This document shows, piece after piece, positions 47,590-64,000 of a stretch of DNA of 64,000 nucleotides. The stretch lies in contig CALLIK010000002.1 of NCBI GenBank assembly GCA_938009235.1, positions 1 through 64,000 on the forward strand, written 5' to 3'. The stretch is from an uncultured Caulobacterales bacterium. Lineage in GTDB: Bacteria > Pseudomonadota > Alphaproteobacteria > Caulobacterales > Maricaulaceae. Under the pieces are notes generated by a model. The model worked only from the letters and a program-made list of their open reading frames with translations. It did not search any database and was not told the origin of the DNA. The stretch's first letter is position 1, and every line of letters starts with the position of its first letter. Both the position numbers and the translations under genes were made by a program.

Positions 47590-48870
47590 ATGGAAGACCA
47601 ATTACTAAAATTAGACTTGATCGAGGACATGCTCGTCGGTTCGGGAGCTGGAGATTTTCGTGAGCTCGAGCGCATTACAGATGTCTTTTGTCCATTCGAA
47701 GCCGTTGGTATGGTGTCGCAAGAAATCAAGCATTCAAGCTTCCTGTCCTACATTCTTGACGAGAATAAACCACATGTTTTTGGATCTAAGGTTTTGCAGG
47801 AGCTTTTGAGTCTGATTGCTGAAAGGACATCTGATATTGATATTGGGTTTTCCAAACTCGACTTGCATTTTATGGATATCTCAAAGGCAACGATTTCGAG
47901 AGAGTGGAGAAATATTGATCTGTTGATCGAAGTACCCAGACGGACGTCAGATCATGCCAAGGGACTCTTGATTACAATTGAATTGAAAATTCACGCGGCT
48001 GAAAGTCCTAATCAGCTAGAAAAATATAAGAAGATCGTCGATGACGAATTTTCAGATGACGAATGGGATAAGATTTTCGTCTTCCTAACACTCCATGAAG
48101 ATGATCCAAGTGAGTCAAATAGTGACACTTGGATCCCCGTTGGTCTTCCAGAATTCATTGAGAGACTTGAACTCTTTATCGGCTCTGACAACTTTCAAGG
48201 ACAAAGCGCCAGCCTACTCAATTCCTATATTAAGATGATGCGGAGAAATTTTATGCCCGACATTGAACTAGAAAAAATTGCGAGAAAAATTTGGGCCAAA
48301 CATAAACTCGCCTTAGATGCCCTGAATGAATACTACCCCGATTTGAGGGGAGAAGTGACGGAACTCATTTACGAGAATCGAGAAGAATTGGCATCTTACC
48401 TTTCTGAGCAAACAGGTTATCGGATTGTGATTGAAAATTCAGACTACGGCTATATTCGCTTCGGAGTTGCGGATTGGGACGACTTGGAAGGCTTACTATC
48501 TGGTGACGAGAGCTGGCTTGATACGGATAGATTGATGGCTTTAGAAATCCGCCCTTGGGGTGATGATAAGATTAGAATGTCATATGTCATTGGCCCAGGT
48601 GCTTCGGAGATGAGAGAAGCTATTTTTGACCACATCTTGAAGCAAATCGGTAAGGGGAAAATAAAAATCGGACGACGAACACCTGTAAGCAGCACTCGTC
48701 ATAAGCATTTGTCAGCTGAATTCATCCTTAGTGAAAAACGTTATAAACAGGCCGAAGAAGCTGAAGAAAATGCAATCGATTTATTTGAGGTCGTAAAAAA
48801 GAATATTGCCAAATTTTTGAAAACAACGCTACCCATCTATGATAAAGTAATGCGTAAAGCCGCTCAGTAA
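47590..48870 (+). CDS. PD-(D/E)xK nuclease family protein (PDDEXK_4-like)
   Basis: 426 residues. The nuclease centre reads D110 in WRNIDLLIEV and E131-x-K133 in ITIELKIHA, followed by QLEKYKK, typical of PDDEXK_4 proteins. An earlier HSSFLSYILDENKPH is also characteristic. The C-terminal 200 residues form an unrecognised domain with charged helices at the end. These proteins recur in defence islands, but their target is not known to me. It is a single gene with its own AT-rich upstream region. Confidence 0.8.
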   Translation: MEDQLLKLDLIEDMLVGSGAGDFRELERITDVFCPFEAVGMVSQEIKHSSFLSYILDENKPHVFGSKVLQELLSLIAERTSDIDIGFSKLDLHFMDISKATISREWRNIDLLIEVPRRTSDHAKGLLITIELKIHAAESPNQLEKYKKIVDDEFSDDEWDKIFVFLTLHEDDPSESNSDTWIPVGLPEFIERLELFIGSDNFQGQSASLLNSYIKMMRRNFMPDIELEKIARKIWAKHKLALDALNEYYPDLRGEVTELIYENREELASYLSEQTGYRIVIENSDYGYIRFGVADWDDLEGLLSGDESWLDTDRLMALEIRPWGDDKIRMSYVIGPGASEMREAIFDHILKQIGKGKIKIGRRTPVSSTRHKHLSAEFILSEKRYKQAEEAEENAIDLFEVVKKNIAKFLKTTLPIYDKVMRKAAQ

Positions 48871-52862: not shown

Positions 52863-52982
52863 TCTAGCTCAACAGCGCTTTGATCTCAAAAGGCACGCGA
52901 TCCAAATTGTTATCTCATGGGGTAGCAAATAGGCTTTTATCACTTAGAGTAAGCAACTGCATTGCCTTTGAGGAGAGATTCG

Positions 52983-54614
52983 ATGGAAACAGGTCAAGAC
53001 TTGTTCGATCATTATACGAGTAGTGGGTTTTCATTCGATCCAGACTTGCTGTCTCGTTACGCACTATCTCTGCATTCCAAGCCCTTCGTCATTTTGTCTG
53101 GCATCTCAGGCACCGGCAAGACCAAAATTGCGCAGCTGTTCCCAATGGAGCAACTTCAAGAAACAAGAAGGGCTGCAGCTAGGCCTGCACCTGCCCGTCA
53201 AGACCAAGGACGTATAAGTGTACAAATCACGGCAGGTTTGAGAGATGGCGATCCTCGCGGCAATATCAAAAGGCAACATTTGGATACAATATTCGAGACA
53301 GCTCAGCTTGACGAGATCAACGCCAAAATTCCCGCGCTAGAAGCCGCCGGCAACGAGGACAATATTATTGACCCCGTGACTCTGACTATTCTCACCCCAG
53401 ATGGCGGAGAAGAAAAAATGGGAGTATATGTTCAAAGGGCCAGTAACCCACTAATTCGCCTCCGGAGTAAATCTAAAAGAGGGGAAACACCGGGGTATGA
53501 TTTCCAGCCCTACCTCCAAGCTAATTTTCAGGTCGGTGATACTCTAACCTTAGCAAAAGTTGGCCCTTATCGTTTTGAAATCGTAGGGGCAAATGATGCT
53601 GACAAAAACGTCGCTGAAACAGAGCGTCTGAGTTTTGTAGAGGAAGTCGATAAACAGCTTTTTGTTCCCGTGAGGAGTGACTGGACAGATCAAAGTGAAA
53701 TTTTTGGCTATTATGATTCACTGTCCCAGGCCTATATCGTCACACCTATTCTTAAGTTCCTTCTAGATGCCATCGCTTATCCTGAAGCTCCATTTCATCT
53801 AATTTTAGATGAAATGAACCTTTCTAAGGTCGAGCACTATTTCTCAGACTTCTTGTCGTGCTTGGAAAGTCGCGTCACAACTGAGGAAGGCATCACTCAA
53901 GCCGCCGTTTCGCTCCATAATTATGGTGGCTATGTAAAGGCGAGTGACCCATTAGTAGAAGATGTACCATCGAAGATAGAGCTTCCTACCAACCTCTATG
54001 TAACTGGTACAGTGAATGTCGATGAGACCACGTATATGTTCAGCCCCAAGGTTCTGGACCGGTCCAATGTTATTGAATTTAACGAAGTTAAACTCAACGA
54101 GATTGGAACTACTCGCGATACAGGGCCTATATCCTTAGAACGCCTTCCACAATTTGGGCACCACAAACCCGTAACCCAAACTGACTTCCAAGCTCTGAAA
54201 GAGAGCGCGAAGACAGTCCTACTATCGCTGCATGATTCAATGTCGTCGGACAATAACCATTTTGGATATCGTACGGCATTTGAAATGGCTCGCTTCATAA
54301 ACGTCGTTCATGACCTGGTTGGGGCCGCTGATGAGAACACCCAAGCAGCCCTAGATGCGCAAATCGTACAAAAGCTACTACCAAAGCTAAATGGGAGTCA
54401 GGCTGAGCTTGAGGACCTCTTAGTCAAATTGATAAAACTTATTTTCACGTTTGATGGTGGTGACGTTGTAGAAGTTGAAACTCTGAACAATACTTGGCTG
54501 GTCAATGAAGGGGCGGAACGGATCCAAGCCTCAAAATATCCACTTTCATTGACCAAACTGGCGAGCATGTTGATAGAAGTACGGGTCCGAGGCTTCACCG
54601 CGTTTATCAACTAA
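52983..54614 (+). CDS. McrB-like AAA+ GTPase
   Basis: 543 residues. The AAA+ core has Walker A GISGTGKT (about 40-47), Walker B LILDEMNLSKVEHYF (about 270), and the McrB-specific TVNVDETTYMFSPKVLDR (about 343-360). Between Walker A and Walker B lies an insertion of about 150 residues not usual for McrB. McrB uses GTP to drive DNA translocation for its nuclease partner McrC, cutting DNA with modified bases. The partner follows after one base. A DNA-binding N-terminal domain is absent, so recognition may lie in the insertion. Confidence 0.85.
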   Translation: METGQDLFDHYTSSGFSFDPDLLSRYALSLHSKPFVILSGISGTGKTKIAQLFPMEQLQETRRAAARPAPARQDQGRISVQITAGLRDGDPRGNIKRQHLDTIFETAQLDEINAKIPALEAAGNEDNIIDPVTLTILTPDGGEEKMGVYVQRASNPLIRLRSKSKRGETPGYDFQPYLQANFQVGDTLTLAKVGPYRFEIVGANDADKNVAETERLSFVEEVDKQLFVPVRSDWTDQSEIFGYYDSLSQAYIVTPILKFLLDAIAYPEAPFHLILDEMNLSKVEHYFSDFLSCLESRVTTEEGITQAAVSLHNYGGYVKASDPLVEDVPSKIELPTNLYVTGTVNVDETTYMFSPKVLDRSNVIEFNEVKLNEIGTTRDTGPISLERLPQFGHHKPVTQTDFQALKESAKTVLLSLHDSMSSDNNHFGYRTAFEMARFINVVHDLVGAADENTQAALDAQIVQKLLPKLNGSQAELEDLLVKLIKLIFTFDGGDVVEVETLNNTWLVNEGAERIQASKYPLSLTKLASMLIEVRVRGFTAFIN

Positions 54615-54615
54615 T

Positions 54616-56154
54616 ATGGCCATAGAGATATATAGTGACCTAGAGCTTACAAAGCCGATTTCTGATGCCCAACTTTTTGAGGGGCTCACTTACTATGCCG
54701 ATTTAACAGATCAGACCCTAAATGAGCGCCAGGCTATAATTGCAAAAGCTGGACTCGCAAACTTTGGTTCCAAACAGCTAAAGAACGAGATCTGGGAGTT
54801 TAAGATTGACGGGTTTGTAGGACACATCCAATTTTCTGATCGGACGTATCAGGTTAGATCCACTAAACTTGCACTTGATGGATCCGGCGATGAACAATTC
54901 CAAAAGCTGTTGGAGGACATACAAGAGACATTAGGTAGCTTCACATTCCGTTATGGCACGCCATCTTCTGCGAGCGTAACATCCGATGCCCAAAACTTGG
55001 CAGATGACCTAAGGCGGTTGGAGTATTTAACATCAAGTTTCTCGAACAATAGCGACCTTAGGTCCATCTCGACCTTGTTAAATATCTTATATCGCCGCCC
55101 GAATAACGTCCTTCGTGACACAACAGAATATATCAAAGCTGGCAAACCAGGGCGAATTGATGTTCGGACCGCAACCCGCAATCTCAACAAACTTGGATTG
55201 GTTTCGCTTGAAAATAGAAGCCAATACGGCGGCATAGAGCTAGGTGGAAAAAGGTACAGTGCGACTCGACTTCCAACGATCAAGAAAGTGACGAGTTACG
55301 ACACCCCAGAAAATAGGTTCATTAAATTCGTTCTGAATGACTTCGAAGGCCTATGCATTCGGCTACGTGGAGACCACCCTAAAAATGATCGAATACTGTC
55401 TGATGCGAATACGCTCCTCGCGCTCGTTAGACAGCATCTGGCGGAACCGCTCTTTCGGGAAGTCCGGCCATTGTCATATTTTCCATCCCATTCATCCGTA
55501 CTAACCCGAGATTTTGCTTATGCCGGAATCTACGAGCATTTTATGCGATCAAAGTATGGCACATCACATTTGCTCGAAAACTTAGAGGCGCAGCTAAGAT
55601 TTTCTTCGCTGAAAGACATCGCTACACTTTATGAAATCTGGTGCTTCACTCAGGTTGTCAACGCCGCATTCGACCCTGAAGACGCTCTTTACATTGACGG
55701 CTTTAATCGTAACCTCAGCAAACTCTCCAACGGGGTGTGTTGGCGAACAAAAGACATCGCAATTTATTTCAACAAGTCGTTTAGTCGAAAGTCTGGCTCC
55801 TATTCACTAACGCTGCGCCCTGATATTGTTGTAGAAAGAAAATTAGGAACCAACCTCCGCTACTGGCTCTTCGACGCAAAGTATAAAGTGAAAATAACTA
55901 AAGATGTTTCTGGTGTCGCTCATTCCGGCGACATTCACAAAATGCACACCTACGTAGACGCAATACACGGCTCCGTTGCCTCCATCGCGCTCTACCCAGG
56001 AACGGCAAATATTTCCTACCCCAGAATGCTCAAAGCGGACGCTGCGGATATTGAAAGTGCCCTGCGGCTCGGAGGAGTGGGCGCAATCGGGTTAGTTCCC
56101 GGGAGAGGTCAGCCAGATGTAAAGAGAGCTATAGAGATAATTGGCAGTCTCTAA
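54616..56154 (+). CDS. McrC-like nuclease (DUF2357)
   Basis: 512 residues. The N-terminal half resembles DUF2357, the region that binds McrB-like GTPases. The C-terminal nuclease shows D403 in TLRPDIVVERK and D420-x-K422 in YWLFDAKYKV, a PD-(D/E)xK centre. It begins one base after the McrB-like stop. A strong hairpin terminator follows at 56188. Confidence 0.85.
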   Translation: MAIEIYSDLELTKPISDAQLFEGLTYYADLTDQTLNERQAIIAKAGLANFGSKQLKNEIWEFKIDGFVGHIQFSDRTYQVRSTKLALDGSGDEQFQKLLEDIQETLGSFTFRYGTPSSASVTSDAQNLADDLRRLEYLTSSFSNNSDLRSISTLLNILYRRPNNVLRDTTEYIKAGKPGRIDVRTATRNLNKLGLVSLENRSQYGGIELGGKRYSATRLPTIKKVTSYDTPENRFIKFVLNDFEGLCIRLRGDHPKNDRILSDANTLLALVRQHLAEPLFREVRPLSYFPSHSSVLTRDFAYAGIYEHFMRSKYGTSHLLENLEAQLRFSSLKDIATLYEIWCFTQVVNAAFDPEDALYIDGFNRNLSKLSNGVCWRTKDIAIYFNKSFSRKSGSYSLTLRPDIVVERKLGTNLRYWLFDAKYKVKITKDVSGVAHSGDIHKMHTYVDAIHGSVASIALYPGTANISYPRMLKADAADIESALRLGGVGAIGLVPGRGQPDVKRAIEIIGSL

Positions 56155-56187
56155 TCTGCCATTTTTCAATTTCTGAAGGTTTCCTTT

Positions 56188-56215
56188 AAAAAAATGGCTC
56201 CGTAGAGCCATTTTT
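56188..56215. terminator. Bidirectional terminator
   Basis: AAAATGGCTC, loop CGTA, GAGCCATTTT, with A runs on the left and T runs on the right. It serves the McrC-like gene on the plus strand and the micro-ORF on the minus strand. Confidence 0.85.
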
Positions 56216-56216
56216 A

Positions 56217-56366
56217 TTATCCAAATGGATCTTCAATTTTACTTTCTAAGATTTCTATCTTATTTTTCAGATATTCAATTTCGTCTCGAATTTCGTCTTT
56301 GAAGAGCTGAAGATAAAGCGCATCCGCCTCAGAAGGGGCCGCGATTATTTTGGTTTGAATTCCCAT
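56217..56366 (-). CDS. 49-residue coiled-coil micro-protein
   Basis: A short frame with ribosome binding site GGAGAAG before the ATG. The second half (LKNKIEILESKIEDP) has a heptad pattern of Leu and Ile typical of a short coiled coil. It starts 11 bases after the stop of the AIPR-like gene, in the same operon, and ends at a terminator. I do not recognise it; an oligomerisation partner or an antidote is possible. Confidence 0.6.
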   Translation of the reverse strand: MGIQTKIIAAPSEADALYLQLFKDEIRDEIEYLKNKIEILESKIEDPFG

Positions 56367-56377
56367 ACTGCTTCTCC

Positions 56378-57712
56378 CTAGCTCATCAACGCAAATTTGA
56401 ATTGCTGAAAAGCAAGGTTGTAAGACCCCTTGTCCTTACCAACCTTCTGGGGGTCATAGTTAGACATTGTTATTGCCATATTGAAACCTTCAACAATTGC
56501 ATCGAAATGCTTCTCTAGGAACTCAAACGGATTCACCTTCCATCCAACCTGGCACTCTTCCACCTCCATAATAGCTGATAGGCCAAACACCAATGGAGCA
56601 ATGAACCCATCAGGAACTTTAAACTCCGTAGGTTGTTTAAAATAAGGTGTAGAAGCCGTACCAGTCTTTGGTTTCTTGACAGCTGTAATCTTACCGAACT
56701 TTCCGCCGGAACGATTATATGATTTAGGTAAGTTTATATGCATCCAATCTACCAACTCTGGCATATCAACTAATATGTCGAATGCAGACTCTACCGAACT
56801 ATTTTGTAGTTGATACTTACCCGTCTTCTGTTGTGTCGCAATGTCGTCCTGCGTCATCAACAAGTCGAAGTTTTCTGACAGCTTTGCCTTGCTACTATAC
56901 AAGAGAGTAGGATTTAAATCGAATGTCTCATCGTTAGATAAGCAATTCTCTTTTTCCAACAATGACAGCGGGACCCATGCTAGTGACACTAAGTCTCGAA
57001 CACGAATTGGGGTCCGGTCATCGCTTTTCCACTCGTTAAGCTTCCACTCGACGCGTTCGGCTAACTGTGGAGATTTTTTCTCAAATCTCGCACGAATTTC
57101 GTCATAAAAGCCCTTCTGGTTAGCTTTCGCCTCTAATGAAAGTTGGGCATTATTGTTACGAGACGCACAGATGTCTATCATAGCAATCCGGAACTCTTCT
57201 AAAGTTTCGGCGCTATCATCTGAAGGAATAAGCAATTCGGTGGCCACATAGAAATTCAACTCATCTTCTAGTTCTAATATTTCACCTAGGTTTTCATCCC
57301 AGACTGACATTAAATCATCCCAAGTCTTGAGTTTTCTAGACCACTCTTGCCCGGTCGCCGCTTCAATCAAGAAAATACCGATTGAAAGCATGTTGTGACC
57401 ACCATCAAGAACACCTTCTACACCACCTGAGAAATCGACTTTATACCGATTTCTTTCTAATGAAGTGGCAGAAGAAGTCGCAATGAGAAGACCCTTTGAT
57501 TTGAATTGAAACAATTCCGGAGAACCCTTCAGAGTATCAATAATTTCAGAGGTGACACGATTGGTTTTGGGTTTGCGTGGGTTCGCGTCCAGTATGTTTT
57601 TCTGGAACAAAGGGATAAGCTGCTTTGCTTTCAAGTATCCCGTTACACGCGTTATTGCATTAAACTCATCCTCAGATGCGTGAAAAATGCGTATTATGTT
57701 TTGCTTTGTCAT
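56378..57712 (-). CDS. AIPR-like protein
   Basis: 444 residues. FQFKSKGLLIATSSAT followed by VLDGGHNMLSIGIFLIE (D103-GGHN) has the arrangement of the AIPR family (abortive infection phage resistance) and the DGQHR-type ParB-like proteins. The rest is helical and unrecognised. It is transcribed toward the McrC-like gene; a tetranucleotide repeat lies 156 bases upstream. The AIPR match is from motif shape and not a profile search. Confidence 0.6.
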   Translation of the reverse strand: MTKQNIIRIFHASEDEFNAITRVTGYLKAKQLIPLFQKNILDANPRKPKTNRVTSEIIDTLKGSPELFQFKSKGLLIATSSATSLERNRYKVDFSGGVEGVLDGGHNMLSIGIFLIEAATGQEWSRKLKTWDDLMSVWDENLGEILELEDELNFYVATELLIPSDDSAETLEEFRIAMIDICASRNNNAQLSLEAKANQKGFYDEIRARFEKKSPQLAERVEWKLNEWKSDDRTPIRVRDLVSLAWVPLSLLEKENCLSNDETFDLNPTLLYSSKAKLSENFDLLMTQDDIATQQKTGKYQLQNSSVESAFDILVDMPELVDWMHINLPKSYNRSGGKFGKITAVKKPKTGTASTPYFKQPTEFKVPDGFIAPLVFGLSAIMEVEECQVGWKVNPFEFLEKHFDAIVEGFNMAITMSNYDPQKVGKDKGSYNLAFQQFKFALMS

Positions 57713-57868
57713 TTTAATTTCCTTTGTAAAGACAAAGGAGAGGCTAAATTTTTACCGGTCGAGCCCTTAAACTCTTCCTATATGTCCAGCCCACTCCAGG
57801 GTTTCCGTCACAAATCCTTGCGACAGGCCCCAATAGGATTAAAATGTAAAAAAGTCAAGTTATTATCG

Positions 57869-57888
57869 ATCTATCTATCTATCTATCT
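57869..57888. repeat. ATCT tetranucleotide repeat (5 copies)
   Basis: Five perfect ATCT units in the 291-base gap between the AIPR-like and methyltransferase genes. On the minus strand it sits just before TTGACT (57853-57858), a possible -35 box of the AIPR-like gene, so copy number could alter transcription. The rest of the gap shows nothing else. Confidence 0.75.
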
Positions 57889-58003
57889 AATAAACCCTTA
57901 AGTTATTGATTAATATGAATACTTATTTTCTGACACTAAGCGTTTAAACGCCGGATCACAATCTAACGACACTTTAGCTGGTAGATAAGAGACGTGCCCC
58001 GAC

Positions 58004-59911
58004 CTAATATCCTACGAAAAGATATTCTTTCACTGAGTTCCTGTTGCTCGACTTCTTATGACCTTGGTTCGCAAAGGAATATCTATAGTCGATCTCTTGG
58101 ACTTCAATATGAGTTTTGTACTTCCCCATCAATGCGACGAGTTCATCCTTTGTGGGCAGTGAATTTGAAGAATAGGACAAAAGGATAATACTGTCTTTGA
58201 GACGCCTAAAGAGCCTGTCAAAAGCGTCATGAGAGCCAACTCGTGTACTGAACGGGGTTGGGTAATTCTTAAACTTCTTGGTCTTCAAATGCTCCTGCAT
58301 CTGAACGCCCTTCCAATCACATGCCAAGCCTTCAACAAAGTGATAGCGACGTACATATTCGTTGTCAGATAAGGGGCTATAATAAGGCGGATCAAGATAG
58401 ACTAAATCAGGCTTGAAAGATGCCGTCATTGCATCCCCTCTGCGCGATTTACTCTCGCGACCATTATCGAAGACAGCTTCGTTCATCAGTGCAGTAGCTC
58501 TGCGAATTTGCTCCTCCATACTCATGCGCAAATCAGCGCGGCCATCATCATATCGGAGGCCCGTATATGTGAAAATTCCCCGAGCTCTTTTCTTGACGCA
58601 GGCCCGAATAAGAGCGGACATTGCAAGCGCACGCTTATATGGATTTCTAATTTTCGCGATGTTTGCACGAACCAAATCAATTATCTGATTTTCTTCGTCG
58701 GTATAATAAAGTCCTTCGAAAGTATCTTGGACGAAACTCCCTTTTGAAGAGTTCTCCCAAAATAGTTTTTCAATATCGCTCTCTGATAAGGTTATCGAAC
58801 TATTCTCGACGAGGGCTTTAGTAATAGTCGCCCCCATCGCCATGTAATCATTGGCGAAGACCTGCTTGCCCATACTCTTGAACATGTAACTTACAACGCC
58901 GGAGCCCGAAAAGAGGTCAGCCACCGTCTCAAACTCAAACCGGTTAGCTATGTTTTGGATGTGCGGGAGTAATTTCTCTTTGGACCCCATATATCGCGTT
59001 GAAGGATATAGGCTTGCTTGCTCTATTAGGGGAGCTGGAACTTCTTTCAATACGAAGCGAGGATGCGCCTTCGCAGTAACAATCACATCTTGTCCTTTTC
59101 GCGTACCAGCCTTCGAACTTATATTACGGCGAGTGCTATGAACCGCAATCTCCATACCTTCATATAATTCCGTAATGAGAGGGTGGTTGGAATTTGTAAG
59201 CACGACGTGGCAACCGAGCTTCTGAAGACGTCGAACTTCTTCAGCAAGTTCAGCATGATCTTCATCATCAAAGCGTTCTTTGGTGTATCGTTTAAAGTCT
59301 GAGTATTCAGAAATGGGTAGATAAGGCGGATCCAAAAATACGAAATCACCAGCGCGCGCATTTTCTTTGAGAACTTTTTTGTAATCCCCCAAAATAATTT
59401 CCGTGCCTTGAAGAGCCTTTGAAGCGGATCGAAGTGTATCCGCCCTAACAAATTTAGCCTTTGGATTTTTCCCGTATGGTGAATTGAAATGACCGCTTTT
59501 ATTGACCCGGTAAAGCCCATTGAAACAGGTTCTATTCAAGAAAATTGTCCGCGCGCCAGCAGTGACCTCATCTAGGTCCTCAAAACGCCTTGCTCGAATT
59601 TCGTAAAAGTCTTCCTCTGTGTTTTTTAGAGAAGACAATTTGACAATTAGAGCCTCCACCTGGTCTCTAACTACTGTATAAACATTGATGAGTTCGGGGT
59701 TCAGATCACCAATGACCCCCTGCTCTGGATTTATATCAAAAAACAAGGCCGCCCCTCCGATGAAGGGTTCGATATATCGGTTGAATGCCTTCGGCCTAAC
59801 CCGGTTCAACTCGTCTAAAAGCTGCGATTTCCCACCAGCCCATTTCAAGAAGGGCTTTGATGGAGGAAGTTCCTTCCCATTCAAGCAAGCGATTGGCAAT
59901 GCATGGTTCAT
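58004..59911 (-). CDS. Fused twin-domain DNA adenine methyltransferase (M.FokI-like)
   Basis: 635 residues. Two complete D12-class adenine methyltransferase domains in tandem. The first has PFLKWAGGKSQLL (WAGGK at 24-28) and LDPPYLP (194-197); the second has STRYMGSKEKLL, VADLFSGSGVVSY and VYLDPPYYSP (from 507). This is the architecture and size of M.FokI, whose halves methylate the two strands of an asymmetric site. GGGA precedes the ATG at 59911; earlier in-frame starts exist at 59923 and GTG 59965. The matching nuclease could be the divergent gene at 60275. Confidence 0.85.
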   Translation of the reverse strand: MNHALPIACLNGKELPPSKPFLKWAGGKSQLLDELNRVRPKAFNRYIEPFIGGAALFFDINPEQGVIGDLNPELINVYTVVRDQVEALIVKLSSLKNTEEDFYEIRARRFEDLDEVTAGARTIFLNRTCFNGLYRVNKSGHFNSPYGKNPKAKFVRADTLRSASKALQGTEIILGDYKKVLKENARAGDFVFLDPPYLPISEYSDFKRYTKERFDDEDHAELAEEVRRLQKLGCHVVLTNSNHPLITELYEGMEIAVHSTRRNISSKAGTRKGQDVIVTAKAHPRFVLKEVPAPLIEQASLYPSTRYMGSKEKLLPHIQNIANRFEFETVADLFSGSGVVSYMFKSMGKQVFANDYMAMGATITKALVENSSITLSESDIEKLFWENSSKGSFVQDTFEGLYYTDEENQIIDLVRANIAKIRNPYKRALAMSALIRACVKKRARGIFTYTGLRYDDGRADLRMSMEEQIRRATALMNEAVFDNGRESKSRRGDAMTASFKPDLVYLDPPYYSPLSDNEYVRRYHFVEGLACDWKGVQMQEHLKTKKFKNYPTPFSTRVGSHDAFDRLFRRLKDSIILLSYSSNSLPTKDELVALMGKYKTHIEVQEIDYRYSFANQGHKKSSNRNSVKEYLFVGY

Positions 59912-60274
59912 TTTTGTTCCCATTTTGTTCAGTGTATTGCATTGCGAATCTGTTCCGTCAATCACAAGCTAGTGGCCGGATCAGAAAGGTTCAACAAGTC
60001 AGATCTGCATAACCTCGGTTCTTTGAATGGACGAATAGCCCGCAAGTCTTTGTCGCGATTGCACCTATGGTCGAATATTTCGGATATTGCCCAAAAATGG
60101 AAAGTTCCATTTACGCTGAGCGTAAGCTCTAGCCAGAGTTTCACGAAAGACGCCGGAGCGCTCTTGCGATTAGATTAAGTGTTTGCAATTTAAAATCAGT
60201 CCGCCAAAGCTGATGATAGAGAAAGCCTGGTCATGGGTTTCACATCCAACAAATTTTGAATTTGAGTAAGAACT
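59912..60274. promoter_or_regulatory. Divergent intergenic region
   Basis: About 360 bases between the starts of the methyltransferase and the DGQHR-nuclease gene. No believable gene on either strand; the short frames here have no ribosome binding site or family character. It must hold both promoters. Confidence 0.5.
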
Positions 60275-62572
60275 ATGGACAGTACTAACCCTGCAAATTT
60301 GCTCGGACCAAAAGAACAGATTTCAGCACATAGAGCACGTAGCAAAAAACATATCGAGAGGACCGTGAACAGAAAGGAGTTTTCTGGTCAAATTGAGGAC
60401 GGATGGTCCTATTCTGAAAAAAAATACAAAACTAAAATTAAGTTAGAAAAACAAAAGCCCAATGACGAAGTATTCGAAGACCAGGTTTGGTGTTTGTTTA
60501 GTTCAATGGGCTTCACAAAGATGTCCGCAGGCCGGCATTTTACTCTCCAGTATGGAAAAAACGAAGCAGAGATGCAGCAGATTGATGTATTAGCCGCTGA
60601 CGATGATGTTGCGATCGTTGTTGAATGTAAGGCCACTAAGGAAGCTGGAAAGAAAGAGAAGGGCACCTTCAAGAAGACCGTTGAAGCTATGTCATCCCAA
60701 AGAGCAGGTATTATTCGAGAGCTCAAAAAACTCCTTAAAAACCCAAAACTCAAAGTTGCCTTTATATTTGCCACGAAAGATTACAGACTTATTGAGAATG
60801 ATAAGGAGCGGTTGAAATCCGCTAAAATCCATCATTTCGGTGAAAATGAAATCGAATATTATCGAGAGTTAGCTGACCACTTGGGAAGTGCTGCGCGATA
60901 TCAACTAGAGGCAGATCTATTTCCAAATCAAAAAATACCCAACATCCATAATGAAGTTTATGCGATCGAGTCACGTGTTGGAAAGATAAAGTGTTACACT
61001 TTTTCAATTGAGCCGGAAAGGTTGTTGAAACTGGGCTATGTCCTCCATCGTTCCCGTGCGGTCGATACGATGCCAAACTACCAAAGACTGATAAAGAAGA
61101 ACCGGTTAAAGAATATTCGCGAATTTGTGGAAAAAGGGGGGTATTTCCCCAATTCTCTAATTGTAAACATCAATGACAAAGTCTTTTTTGAATCGCTCGG
61201 TAAGAACATTGAAAATAGCTCTTCAAGTATCGGGGTTCTCAAACTCCCTCAGAAATACAAGAGTATCTTTATCATCGATGGCCAGCATCGTTTATATTCT
61301 TACTCTGACAGTTCTAAGGCTCAGTCATCAACCGTCCCCGTGGTCGCATTTGTGAAGCTAGATGGCGACGAGCAACTAAAGATGTTCATGGATATAAATG
61401 AAAACCAAAAAGCCATATCTGCAAACCTAAAGACGACTTTGGAAGCAGACTTAAAGTGGGACTCTGACGACCTTAAGCAACGGGCGACAGGCCTCATCAA
61501 TACAGTCGCAATTAAATTAGGTGAAGATTCGAACTCCCCACTCTTCGGTAGAGTTATGGTAGGTGAAGATAAGAAGAGTGATCTTCGGCGCATAAGCTTA
61601 ACATCAATTACACGCGGTATCAAAGGCACGAAATTGGTTGGTCGCTTCTCTCCATCAGAAGTGCTTGAACCTGGTTTTTTCTACACCGGTTCAAATGAGA
61701 AAACTCTTGAGAAGATCACCACGGTTCTTTGGCGTTATTTCGAAGACATTTCAGAAGCTGCGCCCTTGGAATGGGATAGATTTCAAACAAATGAAGGCCT
61801 AATAAATAGCCCTAATGGCGCAACCGCCCTGATAACGACATTTGGTGACATTTTAGATTTTGTAATAAACACTAAAAATTTGTCTGATAGCGATAGCACA
61901 ACAGACGAAATTTATGACCTATGCTCTCCATACATTGCAGTTCTAGGAAAATATCTGAACAATGTTCCTTCTGAACAACGCGCTGAAATGCGGCGTCAAA
62001 AAGGTGGTCAAGCCCCGCTTGTCTTCAGGCGGTTCTATCAGAAATCGCTCAACATTGTGTTTAGCGACTTCTCTCCCGAAGGGTATACAGAATTTTGGGA
62101 AAGTCGCGAAAACGAAATTGTTGACGCAGCAAAGAGAGAGATCGCGTCAATTGAAATAAGCCTGAAGTCGGCAACTAAAAGTGCGCTCGAGAGTAAGTTC
62201 AATGAAAATTGGGAAATTGCCGGTATACCCATCAAGGTCCGCAAATCTGCGAATGAACTAAAGATCGAAAAGGAGAACCTTTCGGGCCAGGTAGTCGACT
62301 TAATGGATTGTTTAAATTTAATACACTATCGCGATATCTTTCTTCAAAATTGGGAAGATCTCTTCAAGTCTGTTTACATTTTCCCCAAGTCAGAAAACAA
62401 ATCCAAAAAGTTACAAACACAATGGTTGGATAGACTAAGCAGAATCCGAAACGACCTCACTCACCAGCACATGATATTGCCTGAAGATGCCAAATTTTTA
62501 AGCGCTGTCACAGATTGGGTGCTTGAAGATAACACGGAGAAACTCGAGCTCGGCGGCCATCTTTCAGGCTAA
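60275..62572 (+). CDS. Nuclease-DGQHR-HEPN-type protein
   Basis: 765 residues in three parts. Residues about 60-190 form a PD-(D/E)xK nuclease: D104 in QIDVLAADD and E117-x-K119 in VVECKATK. Residues about 220-560 are a DGQHR domain, with FIIDGQHRLYS at 332-342, related to DndB/ParB-like proteins. The C-terminal region ends with RIRNDLTHQH, an R725-x4-H730 motif typical of HEPN ribonucleases. It is divergent from the twin methyltransferase. Restriction of unmethylated DNA, with RNA cutting as a second step, is a possible role. Confidence 0.75.
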   Translation: MDSTNPANLLGPKEQISAHRARSKKHIERTVNRKEFSGQIEDGWSYSEKKYKTKIKLEKQKPNDEVFEDQVWCLFSSMGFTKMSAGRHFTLQYGKNEAEMQQIDVLAADDDVAIVVECKATKEAGKKEKGTFKKTVEAMSSQRAGIIRELKKLLKNPKLKVAFIFATKDYRLIENDKERLKSAKIHHFGENEIEYYRELADHLGSAARYQLEADLFPNQKIPNIHNEVYAIESRVGKIKCYTFSIEPERLLKLGYVLHRSRAVDTMPNYQRLIKKNRLKNIREFVEKGGYFPNSLIVNINDKVFFESLGKNIENSSSSIGVLKLPQKYKSIFIIDGQHRLYSYSDSSKAQSSTVPVVAFVKLDGDEQLKMFMDINENQKAISANLKTTLEADLKWDSDDLKQRATGLINTVAIKLGEDSNSPLFGRVMVGEDKKSDLRRISLTSITRGIKGTKLVGRFSPSEVLEPGFFYTGSNEKTLEKITTVLWRYFEDISEAAPLEWDRFQTNEGLINSPNGATALITTFGDILDFVINTKNLSDSDSTTDEIYDLCSPYIAVLGKYLNNVPSEQRAEMRRQKGGQAPLVFRRFYQKSLNIVFSDFSPEGYTEFWESRENEIVDAAKREIASIEISLKSATKSALESKFNENWEIAGIPIKVRKSANELKIEKENLSGQVVDLMDCLNLIHYRDIFLQNWEDLFKSVYIFPKSENKSKKLQTQWLDRLSRIRNDLTHQHMILPEDAKFLSAVTDWVLEDNTEKLELGGHLSG

Positions 62573-62758
62573 CCGGTGCAACCTCACTCTAGTGAATATA
62601 GGACGCTCAGAGATCCCTGAAATTAAAGTACGTTTCATACATCAAATCTTATGGCAGCTAGAGGTCATTGATGAGTATCAATTGTGAAAACGTAGAGCCC
62701 CACAATAATATAGGGCAGGTTCTCCTATATTCAATTTTAGCTATATGAAGGTTGTTAG
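62573..62758. other. Intergenic region before the TPR gene
   Basis: No supported gene. A short hairpin (TATAGG with CCTATA) lies near 62710-62730 and a GAAGG ribosome binding site at 62747. Confidence 0.4.
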
Positions 62759-64000
62759 ATGGAAAAATGGGCTTCGCTACTGCAAGATATTGTCACGTCG
62801 ATCTCACTTGATGAAGCTGATTTAGGGCCTGTCATAAACGCGTGTGATGACCCAAAGGTAGAAATTTATCTGAAGGGTTTACCACACAAAGGCATTCAAC
62901 CGCCCATAAAGGATAACTCGATCATTGCCGAGCTCAACGCGTCGGGGCAAACAGCAGAAGCAACCATATTAAACCTTACAATACACCGTTCAATCTTGGA
63001 GAATACCAACAATCCGGGTGCACTCTCAGCAAGTGAAAAAATCCAAATTTCAGATCTATTTGATGAGCTAATAGCATCCTGCCGAAATCACCCAGATGAA
63101 CTTTCACCAAGCGCATATTTCATCTTACGCTTGAATGCAGGCTTCTATGGTTCGGAAGGAGATTTTGAAGCTGAAAAAAATGCCAACGATGAAGCGCTGA
63201 AAATTTTACGTCACCAAACACTCTCTAATAAACACGATCAACGCGAAAAGTTGGCGGATTTTCTTTACAACCTTGGAATTCTTTATAGCCAAAGAGAGAA
63301 CTTTTCTGCATCCCTAAACGCTTACAAAGAAGCGCGGGACATCGGCATCCTTCTAATTCAGAACGGATCCGCCTCTTCCAAACATAGTCTGGCAATAACA
63401 TTAAACAATCTGGGTAATTTACAAGGACGAACAGGCGACTCAGAAGCGGCCCTTATTTCACTTTCCAGCGCAATAGCTATATACCGTGAATTGATAGAAG
63501 AGTGTTTTCATTCATGTGAAGAGGATCTTGCTCTCTCTCTCATTTCAATCGGAAAAATACACTTCACCAAAAAGGACTTTGAACAAGCTAAGCTAGATTT
63601 AAAAGAAGCGTGCCATCTGTATGAGACACTAAGCGAAATCCATCCAACTCAATATCAAACCGGCTTGGCATTGGCTTTAAGGAACCTTGGCGGCACTTAC
63701 GGCCAAAACGAGGAGCTTGCGCTTGCTCTTGAATGCTTTGAAAAAGCCTGCGTGATCGATAGAAATTTGGCGAGTTCCGGAGATCCGGATGCATGCAATG
63801 GATTAGCATCGACGCTGAACAATTTGGCAATAATATATTTTAAGCAGGGGCATTTTCAATTGTGCCAAGACGCGTTCCAAGAGTGCTGGCAGGTTCGCAG
63901 CCGACTTTCGGTCGAAAACCCCTTAACATTCGGAGGAGATCTCGCCTCCCTCCTAAAAAACCTTGGAATGGTCCACAGGAAGCTTGGCAATCATACTGCG
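62759..64000 (+). CDS. Tetratricopeptide repeat protein (partial at right edge)
   Basis: The frame is open for 414 codons from ATG 62759 to the window end. After an N-terminal domain of about 120 residues I do not recognise, at least five TPR units appear, for example LNNLGNLQGRTGDSEAALIS, LRNLGGTYGQNEELALALEC and LNNLAIIYFKQGHFQLCQ. The kinesin-light-chain type of repeat (xxNNLGxxxxxxGxxxxA) is often fused to CHAT or other effector domains in defence and signalling proteins; such a domain would lie beyond the edge. Confidence 0.8.
   Translation, partial: MEKWASLLQDIVTSISLDEADLGPVINACDDPKVEIYLKGLPHKGIQPPIKDNSIIAELNASGQTAEATILNLTIHRSILENTNNPGALSASEKIQISDLFDELIASCRNHPDELSPSAYFILRLNAGFYGSEGDFEAEKNANDEALKILRHQTLSNKHDQREKLADFLYNLGILYSQRENFSASLNAYKEARDIGILLIQNGSASSKHSLAITLNNLGNLQGRTGDSEAALISLSSAIAIYRELIEECFHSCEEDLALSLISIGKIHFTKKDFEQAKLDLKEACHLYETLSEIHPTQYQTGLALALRNLGGTYGQNEELALALECFEKACVIDRNLASSGDPDACNGLASTLNNLAIIYFKQGHFQLCQDAFQECWQVRSRLSVENPLTFGGDLASLLKNLGMVHRKLGNHTA

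What the first reader, a model, noticed from the sequence alone, without database searches (positions are those of the whole stretch)
56217..62572. Candidate new modification-linked defence cluster: twin methyltransferase, nuclease-DGQHR-HEPN protein, AIPR-like protein and micro-ORF
Seen: a fused D12 methyltransferase gene, a divergent gene with PD-(D/E)xK, DGQHR and RNxxxH motifs, and nearby an AIPR-like gene with a coiled-coil micro-ORF. Known: M.FokI-type fusions protect asymmetric sites; DGQHR and AIPR proteins occur in DNA-modification and abortive-infection systems. Inference: these genes form one restriction or abortive system using methylation as the self mark. I know of no described system with this set.
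Basis: partly seen in the sequence, partly recalled or inferred. Interest (0 to 1): 0.85.

Follow-up and report, generated by a model that had tools for sequence, protein, structure and literature searches.

The report
Methylase paired with three-part nuclease
A DNA-marking enzyme and a large protein with two predicted cutting domains sit side by side here and, in related forms, in many unrelated bacteria and phages, so they are probably a little-known two-gene anti-virus system; the two other genes named in the finding are probably not part of it.

Summary
The main genes are real. The three-gene reading fails; a two-gene reading holds. I examined 24 other loci coding for the long PD-(D/E)xK–DGQHR–HEPN-type protein. 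In 21 a D12 adenine methylase is nearby, usually the next gene; the other 3 carry a radical-SAM gene instead; none carries the AIPR-like gene. Nuclease residues are intact in all 22 methylase-linked copies (window included) and altered in all 3 radical-SAM-linked ones, which are not one clade (p-AU 0.00016). The HEPN RxxxxH motif is kept in 16 of 25. The window's twin methylase is AlwI-type: 7 of 8 relatives opened sit beside an AlwI-family endonuclease; none was found in this genome, whose only D12 methylase is this one. Best reading: modification-linked restriction in which a ParB-like domain governs a DNA-cutting and, here, perhaps an RNA-cutting domain, with an AlwI-type methylase swapped in. 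Whether the mark shields DNA or licenses the nuclease (SspE-like) is open. I saw no description of this pair in the papers searched.

The parts
58004..59911 (-). Twin D12 adenine methylase, AlwI type (GTG start at 59965 also possible); halves about 59120-59842 and 58208-58993
   Evidence: 54-65% identity to 8 opened relatives, 7 of them beside AlwI-family endonucleases
60275..62572 (+). 765-aa effector protein: PD-(D/E)xK nuclease, DGQHR (ParB/DndB-like) domain, HEPN-like C-terminus
60476..60631 (+). PD-(D/E)xK catalytic core of that protein, residues 68-119 (E68, D104, E117, K119)
   Evidence: residues intact in 22 of 22 methylase-linked copies, window included; the whole model's best solved-structure matches are the nucleases Cdn1 and Card1 (probability 1.00, E 5.4e-3 to 3.4e-2; none at E 0.001 or better; aligned ranges not given)
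60962..61852 (+). DGQHR domain, residues 230-526; DGQHR motif at 61277-61291
   Evidence: NCBIfam TIGR03187 1.9e-47; motif identical in 25 of 25 copies; model matches viral models with GmrSD, occlusion-protein and sulfur-modification names (aligned ranges not given)
62162..62494 (+). HEPN-like (Swt1-type) C-terminal region, residues 630-740; RNDLTH motif at 62447-62464
   Evidence: below cut-off; PDC-M34B
59912..60274 (.). Divergent intergenic region between the two genes, expected to hold both promoters
   Evidence: coordinates; the promoter scan found 14 sites in 55900-63000 against 12.0 (sd 3.6) in shuffles and none in this gap, so no promoter is claimed

Best explanation
A two-gene, modification-linked restriction system. 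The methylase puts N6-methyl marks on both strands of an asymmetric GAT-containing site (predicted GGATC/GATCC, from its AlwI-type relatives). The large protein is the effector: its DGQHR domain, of the ParB/GmrS/DndB kind, is expected to bind an NTP and read the state of the DNA, and then to release the PD-(D/E)xK domain to cut DNA lacking the self mark. The HEPN-like end would cut RNA as a second, self-sacrificing step. Shown here: gene pairing across phyla, intact motifs, conservation pattern, no AlwI endonuclease and no other D12 methylase detected in this genome. Inferred: site, NTP use, order of steps, defence role. In this window an AlwI-type twin methylase stands where other loci have a single D12 methylase.
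For: Of 24 other long-form loci 21 have a D12 methylase, co-directional in 21 of 21; gap -50 to 276 bases in 17 of the 19 pairs measured, the other two having a second methylase and R.DpnII in between. In prophage-like contigs L017 and L022 the 9 flanking proteins scanned are 8 phage proteins and one of unknown function, no further restriction gene. Matrix correlation of the two proteins: r 0.39, 0.60 and 0.35 for three row sets (permutations as high: 0, 0 and 14 of 5000). The motif NGLYRxN, recalled as typical of GATC-reading enzymes, occurs in the N half here and in 16 of 19 partner methylases. Nuclease residues intact in 22/22 methylase-linked copies and altered in 3/3 radical-SAM-linked ones. 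This genome: no AlwI-family hit, one D12 methylase, the twin. Relatives in print: a DGQQR arginine is needed for GTP hydrolysis and nicking in SspE (PMC13251355, passages); a DndB-like protein binds ATP and GTP (PMC12704722, passages).
Against: No function has been tested. The pair is divergent here, unlike all 21 others. The combination of an AlwI-type twin methylase with this effector is seen only in the window (effector in 0 of 8 twin-methylase loci; twin methylase not seen in the 24 effector loci). The HEPN model scores under its cut-off and its motif is missing in 9 of 25 copies, so RNA cutting is not a core step of the family. The [DNS]PP[YFW] pattern was not found in 2 of the 19 partner methylases, L007 and L012. 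The AlwI family model rang in none of the 14 control genomes, so its absence rests also on the negative BLAST of the window; the genome is 94.8% complete. Several loci are near copies, so counts are not independent.
Confidence: 0.6

Rival explanations
1. Mark-licensed effector: as in SspE, the self mark switches the effector on (NTP hydrolysis, then nuclease release), rather than shielding DNA from a nuclease that is always ready.
For: SspE has the same logic of ParB-like NTPase plus nuclease, and is described as not toxic without the mark (PMC13251355, passages). DGQHR motif identical in 25 of 25. The effector co-exists with a DpnII system in L007/L012, and the tree needs two changes of partner between D12 and radical SAM.
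Against: A D12 methylase or a radical-SAM gene is present in 24 of 24 loci, which also fits a toxic nuclease that needs protection. SspE reads a sulphur mark and carries HNH, not PD-(D/E)xK.
Confidence: 0.25
2. Chance neighbours in the window: the AlwI-type methylase is an orphan that lost its endonuclease, and the effector lost its own single D12 methylase.
For: Divergent orientation here only; twin methylases sit beside AlwI endonucleases in 7 of 8 loci opened, and a paper reports AlwI-family endonucleases always with the fused methylase (PMC12898733, section 2.1). A methylase without its endonuclease occurs (L051).
Against: Both genes are intact; the effector has a D12 methylase or radical-SAM gene nearby in 24 of 24 other loci, and this methylase is the only D12 methylase found in the genome.
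Confidence: 0.15
3. The large protein is a regulator or helper of modification (DndB- or DpdB-like) rather than an effector.
For: Its middle domain matches DpdB/DndB models; DndB is described as a regulator and DpdB as an ATPase used for insertion (PMC10853773 and PMC12839542, passages).
Against: The PD-(D/E)xK residues are intact in 22 of 22 methylase-linked copies; a methylase of this kind is not known to need a helper (recalled).
Confidence: 0.1
4. The full set (methylase, effector, AIPR-like protein, micro-ORF) is one system, as first read.
For: Adjacency; AIPR-family genes are reported frequent near R-M systems (PMC3506569, passages; Priestia example).
Against: AIPR-like gene in 0 of 24 effector loci and no partner at 5 of 5 AIPR-like relatives in the stretches held; micro-ORF without relatives in the loci held.
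Confidence: 0.06

Closest known systems
AlwI-type (Type IIS) restriction-modification
   Same: Twin D12 methylase, 54-65% identical to 8 opened relatives, 7 beside AlwI-family endonucleases
   Different: No AlwI endonuclease found in window or genome; an unrelated PD-(D/E)xK-DGQHR-HEPN protein instead
SspABCD-SspE (phosphorothioate-sensing)
   Same: ParB-like DGQ[QH]R domain joined to a nuclease, beside DNA-modifying genes (PMC13251355, passages)
   Different: DNA methylase instead of sulphur chemistry; PD-(D/E)xK and HEPN-like ends instead of HNH
GmrSD Type IV restriction
   Same: ParB/Srx-fold domain with DGQQR-like motif in a restriction protein (PMC4619093, passages); structural matches to GmrSD-named viral models
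   Different: GmrSD_N model 15.4 bits against cut-off 33.2 and no HNH match; comes with its own methylase
Dnd/Dpd systems (DndB, DpdB)
   Same: DGQHR domain next to DNA-modification genes
   Different: No other Dnd or Dpd gene among the 10 window proteins scanned; DpdB equivalog score 77.8 against 300
ParB-HEPN (Swt1-like) fusion listed in Anantharaman et al. 2013 (Saro_3948)
   Same: Same ParB plus Swt1-like HEPN architecture, from the species of L002, probably this very family (PMC3710099, Table 1 passage)
   Different: The passages seen name neither the N-terminal nuclease nor a methylase partner; identity of Saro_3948 with the L002 protein was not checked
PD-lambda-5 (prophage defence with a methylase)
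   Different: Its B model matches this methylase at E 7e-22, as do many D12 models; the effector's three PADLOC hits include no PD-lambda-5 model

Membership tests
AlwI-type R-M | Fused twin D12 methylase of the AlwI type | tested here: met
   54-65% identity over 97-100% of the query to the 8 relatives opened, 7 of them AlwI-linked; PDLC03261 949.6 bits
AlwI-type R-M | AlwI-family endonuclease | tested here: not met
   No tblastn hit in the window with 3 AlwI proteins at E up to 1; PF09491 0 matches in own genome, but controls silent too; the near relative L072 does have one by BLAST
AlwI-type R-M | GGATC methylation | not testable with these tools
   needs methylation calling
D12 methylase + long DGQHR nuclease pair (this report) | Adjacent D12 methylase | tested here: met
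   for the window; 21 of 24 others
D12 methylase + long DGQHR nuclease pair (this report) | Intact E..D..ExK and DGQHR | tested here: met
D12 methylase + long DGQHR nuclease pair (this report) | Co-directional operon | tested here: not met
   divergent in the window; co-directional in 21 of 21 others
Dpd (DpdB) | DpdB equivalog score and DpdA partner | tested here: not met
   77.8 bits against 300; no DpdA among the 10 window proteins scanned; rest of genome not searched
Dnd | dndA/C/D/E genes | tested here: not met
   none among the 10 window proteins scanned around it; rest of genome not searched
GmrSD | GmrSD_N above cut-off and HNH domain | tested here: not met
   15.4 against 33.2 bits; no HNH match
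SspE | HNH nuclease and sulphur-mark genes | tested here: not met
   no HNH match; no sulphur-mark gene among the 10 window proteins scanned
HEPN (Swt1-like) | Family score and Rx4-6H motif | tested here: inconclusive
   motif RNDLTH present; Pfam 18.1 against 27.5 bits
AIPR (neighbour gene) | Pfam AIPR above cut-off | tested here: not met
   15.6 against 25 bits

The most novel reading that the evidence does not exclude
A modular immune effector that reads different DNA marks: a DGQHR NTPase hub paired with exchangeable modification genes (single Dam-like, DpnII set, AlwI twin, or an undescribed radical-SAM module), in which the mark licenses rather than shields, and in which nuclease and HEPN ends are kept or lost according to the partner: DNA cutting with methylases, and RNA cutting alone where a radical-SAM enzyme supplies a possibly new DNA modification.
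Probability: 0.18. Interest if true: 0.85.

Novelty: new variant of a known kind. Interest (0 to 1): 0.62.

Why it matters
Loci with this pair come from Bacillota, Bacteroidota and Actinomycetota, from three other genomes of the window's own family, one more of its phylum, and from viral contigs. None of the window protein's three PADLOC hits covers it as a whole, and I saw no description of the pair in the papers searched. It offers a direct test of an open question: how ParB-like NTPase domains couple a DNA mark to DNA cutting. The radical-SAM-linked copies, with altered nuclease residues and a kept RxxxxH motif, point to a possible DNA modification worth looking for by mass spectrometry.

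Tried and rejected
Three-gene cluster: rejected on co-occurrence. M.FokI-type: replaced by AlwI type. PD-lambda-5 membership: not supported. Idea that the AIPR-like protein is itself a DGQHR relative because of its DGGHN motif: profile comparison gave 10.8% probability, so not claimed, although a paper places the N-terminal part of DndB in the AbiU1/AIPR family (PMC3506569, passage). AIPR-like fold model too poor to use (pLDDT 46.9). Sequence search of solved structures with the effector profile: two hits at E 0.46, both cytochrome c peroxidase. Viral-contig scans with the single AIPR-like and methylase proteins: no relatives; a scan with an AIPR alignment gave 2. Phage records: 2 matches to the DGQHR domain and 1 weak match to the AIPR-like protein. 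Promoter scan at shuffle level; terminator-like sites 10 against 6.8, sd 2.8. Independent-pairs test of partner against nuclease loss: only 2 pairs, cannot reach significance. The matrix correlation falls to 0.35 with 14 of 5000 permutations as high once L006 and two near copies are left out; L018 and L060 were left out of that test because their methylase or effector gene is split into two frames, and the window was not among its rows.
Full report
What is there. The window holds, in order, a micro-ORF (56217-56366, minus), an AIPR-like gene (56378-57712, minus), a twin D12 methylase (58004-59911 or to 59965, minus) and, divergently, a 765-aa protein (60275-62572, plus). Family scans support the methylase and the DGQHR domain strongly, and the AIPR and HEPN labels only below Pfam's cut-offs. 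The protein's motifs are E68, D104, E117, K119, DGQHR 335-339 and RNDLTH 725-730. A predicted model (mean pLDDT 84.9, pTM 0.55) was compared whole. Among solved structures no match reached E 0.001; the best are the nucleases Cdn1 and Card1 (probability 1.00, E 5.4e-3 to 3.4e-2), with AF1548, McrBC and FokI lower down. Among viral models 10 reached E 0.001, of which three carry GmrSD names, one is called occlusion protein, one sulfur modification protein; the first ParB-like name is at 1.1e-3. These outputs give no aligned ranges; that the first set concerns the N-terminal part and the second the middle part is my inference from the motifs.

Who travels with whom. I collected 24 other loci that code for the long protein: 9 from genome contigs (a scan with single-protein patterns, so close relatives only), 9 from viral contigs (L017-L025; the 22 further hits matched the DGQHR domain only and served as a comparison), 2 from plasmids (of the 5 plasmid records with at least 80% cover, 3 looked like duplicates of these by organism, length and identity and were not fetched), and 4 from whole-genome searches (2 of 398 genomes of the phylum at E 1e-30 and 4 of 137 of the family at E 1e-40 had it, own genome included in both). 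A D12 methylase is present in 21 of 24; the other 3 have a radical-SAM gene; the AIPR-like gene is in 0 of 24; an AlwI endonuclease in 0; DpnII in 2; a DUF7226 gene in 4. Among the 22 DGQHR-domain-only loci D12 is found in 2 and an N6/N4 methylase in 12. Some loci are near copies (L007/L012, L019/L020, L041/L042) and flanks are unequal, some cut by contig ends, so the counts are not independent draws.

Anatomy elsewhere. The two genes run in one direction in 21 of 21. In 17 of 19 measured pairs they are 276 bases apart or closer, many overlapping; in L007 and L012 a second methylase and a DpnII-type gene (Pfam DpnII 2.1e-110 for L007's) stand between, so the protein is a fourth gene of a DpnII-like operon. 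In L017 and L022 the 9 flanking proteins scanned are terminase, portal, minor head, helicase-loader and SSB proteins and one of unknown function (a tenth, in L025, is a tape-measure protein); not every flanking frame was scanned. In four loci the third gene is DUF7226; the L009 copy matches the last third of a PADLOC Type II endonuclease model (E 3.8e-14): perhaps a DNA-reading part. In L002 and L003 (plasmids of Novosphingobium and Agrobacterium) the protein lies with a short DGQHR protein, a radical-SAM protein, two ATP-binding proteins (HATPase by Pfam in L003) and a PIN-like protein; in L021 with a radical-SAM gene, 39% identical to that of L003.

Conservation pattern. Over 25 copies (window included) DGQHR is identical in all. 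The residues E68, D104, E117, K119 are intact in all 22 methylase-linked copies; in the 3 radical-SAM-linked copies K119 is R, R or T, and in one D104 is N. On the tree the radical-SAM copies are not one clade (AU p 0.00016) and two changes of partner are needed; two independent cases are too few for a test of the link with nuclease loss. The aligned RxxxxH is present in 16 of 25 (the L060 copy, read from its separate C-terminal piece, included) and missing in 9, which need one change on the tree (two of the 9, L009 and L010, end early). The window keeps both ends. DGQHR-protein and methylase identities correlate (r 0.39 for 19 pairs, 0.60 without L006, 0.35 without L006, L020 and L012; permutations as high 0, 0 and 14 of 5000). 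NGLYRxN is in 16 of the 19 partner methylases and the pattern [DNS]PP[YFW] in 17 of 19, missing in L007 and L012.

The methylase. Of 24 plasmid records with a match at E 1e-60 or better, 11 cover at least 80% of the query, at 53-60% identity; 10 of these 11 are annotated as Dam-family enzymes, one carries no annotation. I opened 7 of the 11: 6 have an AlwI-family endonuclease next to the methylase or one small gene away (two of them, from Geobacillus, nearly identical), and one (L051) has none. A genome of the window's own family (G512) has the twin methylase at 65% with an AlwI-type endonuclease beside it. A paper reports the same rule, that AlwI-family endonucleases were always associated with this kind of fused methylase (PMC12898733, section 2.1 read and passages). 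In the window no AlwI protein is found, the family model finds none in the genome (controls silent), and the only D12 methylase found in the genome is this twin. Hence the inference that the AlwI-type methylase here serves the DGQHR protein. GGATC as its site is inferred from its relatives' partner (the specificity of AlwI is recalled), not shown.

The AIPR-like gene and micro-ORF. Relatives at 34-41% identity were found on plasmids, viral contigs and in G500; none of the 5 opened has the methylase or the DGQHR protein in the stretch held. In the family, 2 of 137 genomes have the AIPR-like gene (own and G500) and 4 of 137 the DGQHR protein (own, G402, G485, G530), sharing only the window's genome. 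The micro-ORF has no relative in the loci held, and no frame behind 4 AIPR-like relatives looked like it, by eye.

Mechanism. SspE offers the best-studied parallel: an arginine of DGQQR is needed for GTP hydrolysis and nicking, the self mark stimulates the GTPase, and this licenses the nuclease (PMC13251355, passages). A DndB-like protein binds ATP and GTP (PMC12704722, passages). HEPN domains are reported as tightly associated with many R-M systems, and a Swt1-like HEPN fused to ParB was listed in 2013 under Saro_3948, probably the L002 family (PMC3710099, passages). From this I infer: methylase marks self; DGQHR domain reads the mark with an NTP; the nuclease cuts unmarked DNA; HEPN, where kept, cuts RNA. 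Whether the mark shields or licenses cannot be told from sequence.

Novelty. Searches for DGQHR (6 papers listed), DndB with HEPN (4), DndB with adenine methyltransferase, operon and nuclease (4), and at least four of five related terms (4) showed no description of this pair in what I saw: the listings, and passages of PMC10853773, PMC12839542, PMC12704722, PMC12707154, PMC4619093, PMC3710099 and PMC3506569. The 19 copies of A2 match PADLOC through seven models named DpdB, DndB, PDC-M34B, CARF_PDDEXK and Csx1. I rate it a new variant of modification-linked restriction.

Setting. The cluster has 42.4% G+C against 49.6% for bases 1-47000, and that stretch carries relaxase-like (DUF3363), coupling-protein, VirB4-like, TrbI and ArdA genes, so the genes are probably cargo of a conjugative element, beside an McrB-like/DUF2357-PD-(D/E)xK pair and a PDC-S26 gene.

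Noticed in passing
56217-57712: AIPR-like gene with DGGHN and RNNN..KANQKG motifs, 34-41% identical to genes on Roseomonas and Subdoligranulum plasmids, two viral contigs and G500; below Pfam AIPR's cut-off. The micro-ORF behind it has no relative in the loci held.
   Followed up: partly
52962-56154: McrB-like ATPase (PDC-M26A) followed by a DUF2357 / PDDEXK_7 protein: a probable McrBC-like modification-dependent restriction pair.
   Followed up: no
47590-48870: PDDEXK_4 protein of the PADLOC candidate family PDC-S26 (E 8.2e-97).
   Followed up: no
25847-46823: Conjugation genes (TrbI, VirB4-like, TraG coupling protein, DUF3363 relaxase-like) and an ArdA antirestriction gene: the window is probably part of a conjugative element.
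   Followed up: no
L002, L003, L021: Radical-SAM protein with DGQHR proteins (in L002 and L003 also ATP-binding proteins and a PIN-like protein): possibly an undescribed DNA-modification system.
   Followed up: partly
L027, L028, L033-L040, L043, L044: Short DGQHR proteins on viral contigs with N6/N4 methylases, 12 of 22 loci.
   Followed up: partly
L009, L010, L011, L013: DUF7226 protein as third gene; the L009 copy matches the C-terminal part of a Type II endonuclease model.
   Followed up: no
L051: AlwI-type methylase without its endonuclease on an Acinetobacter plasmid, near a carbapenemase gene; described only.
   Followed up: partly
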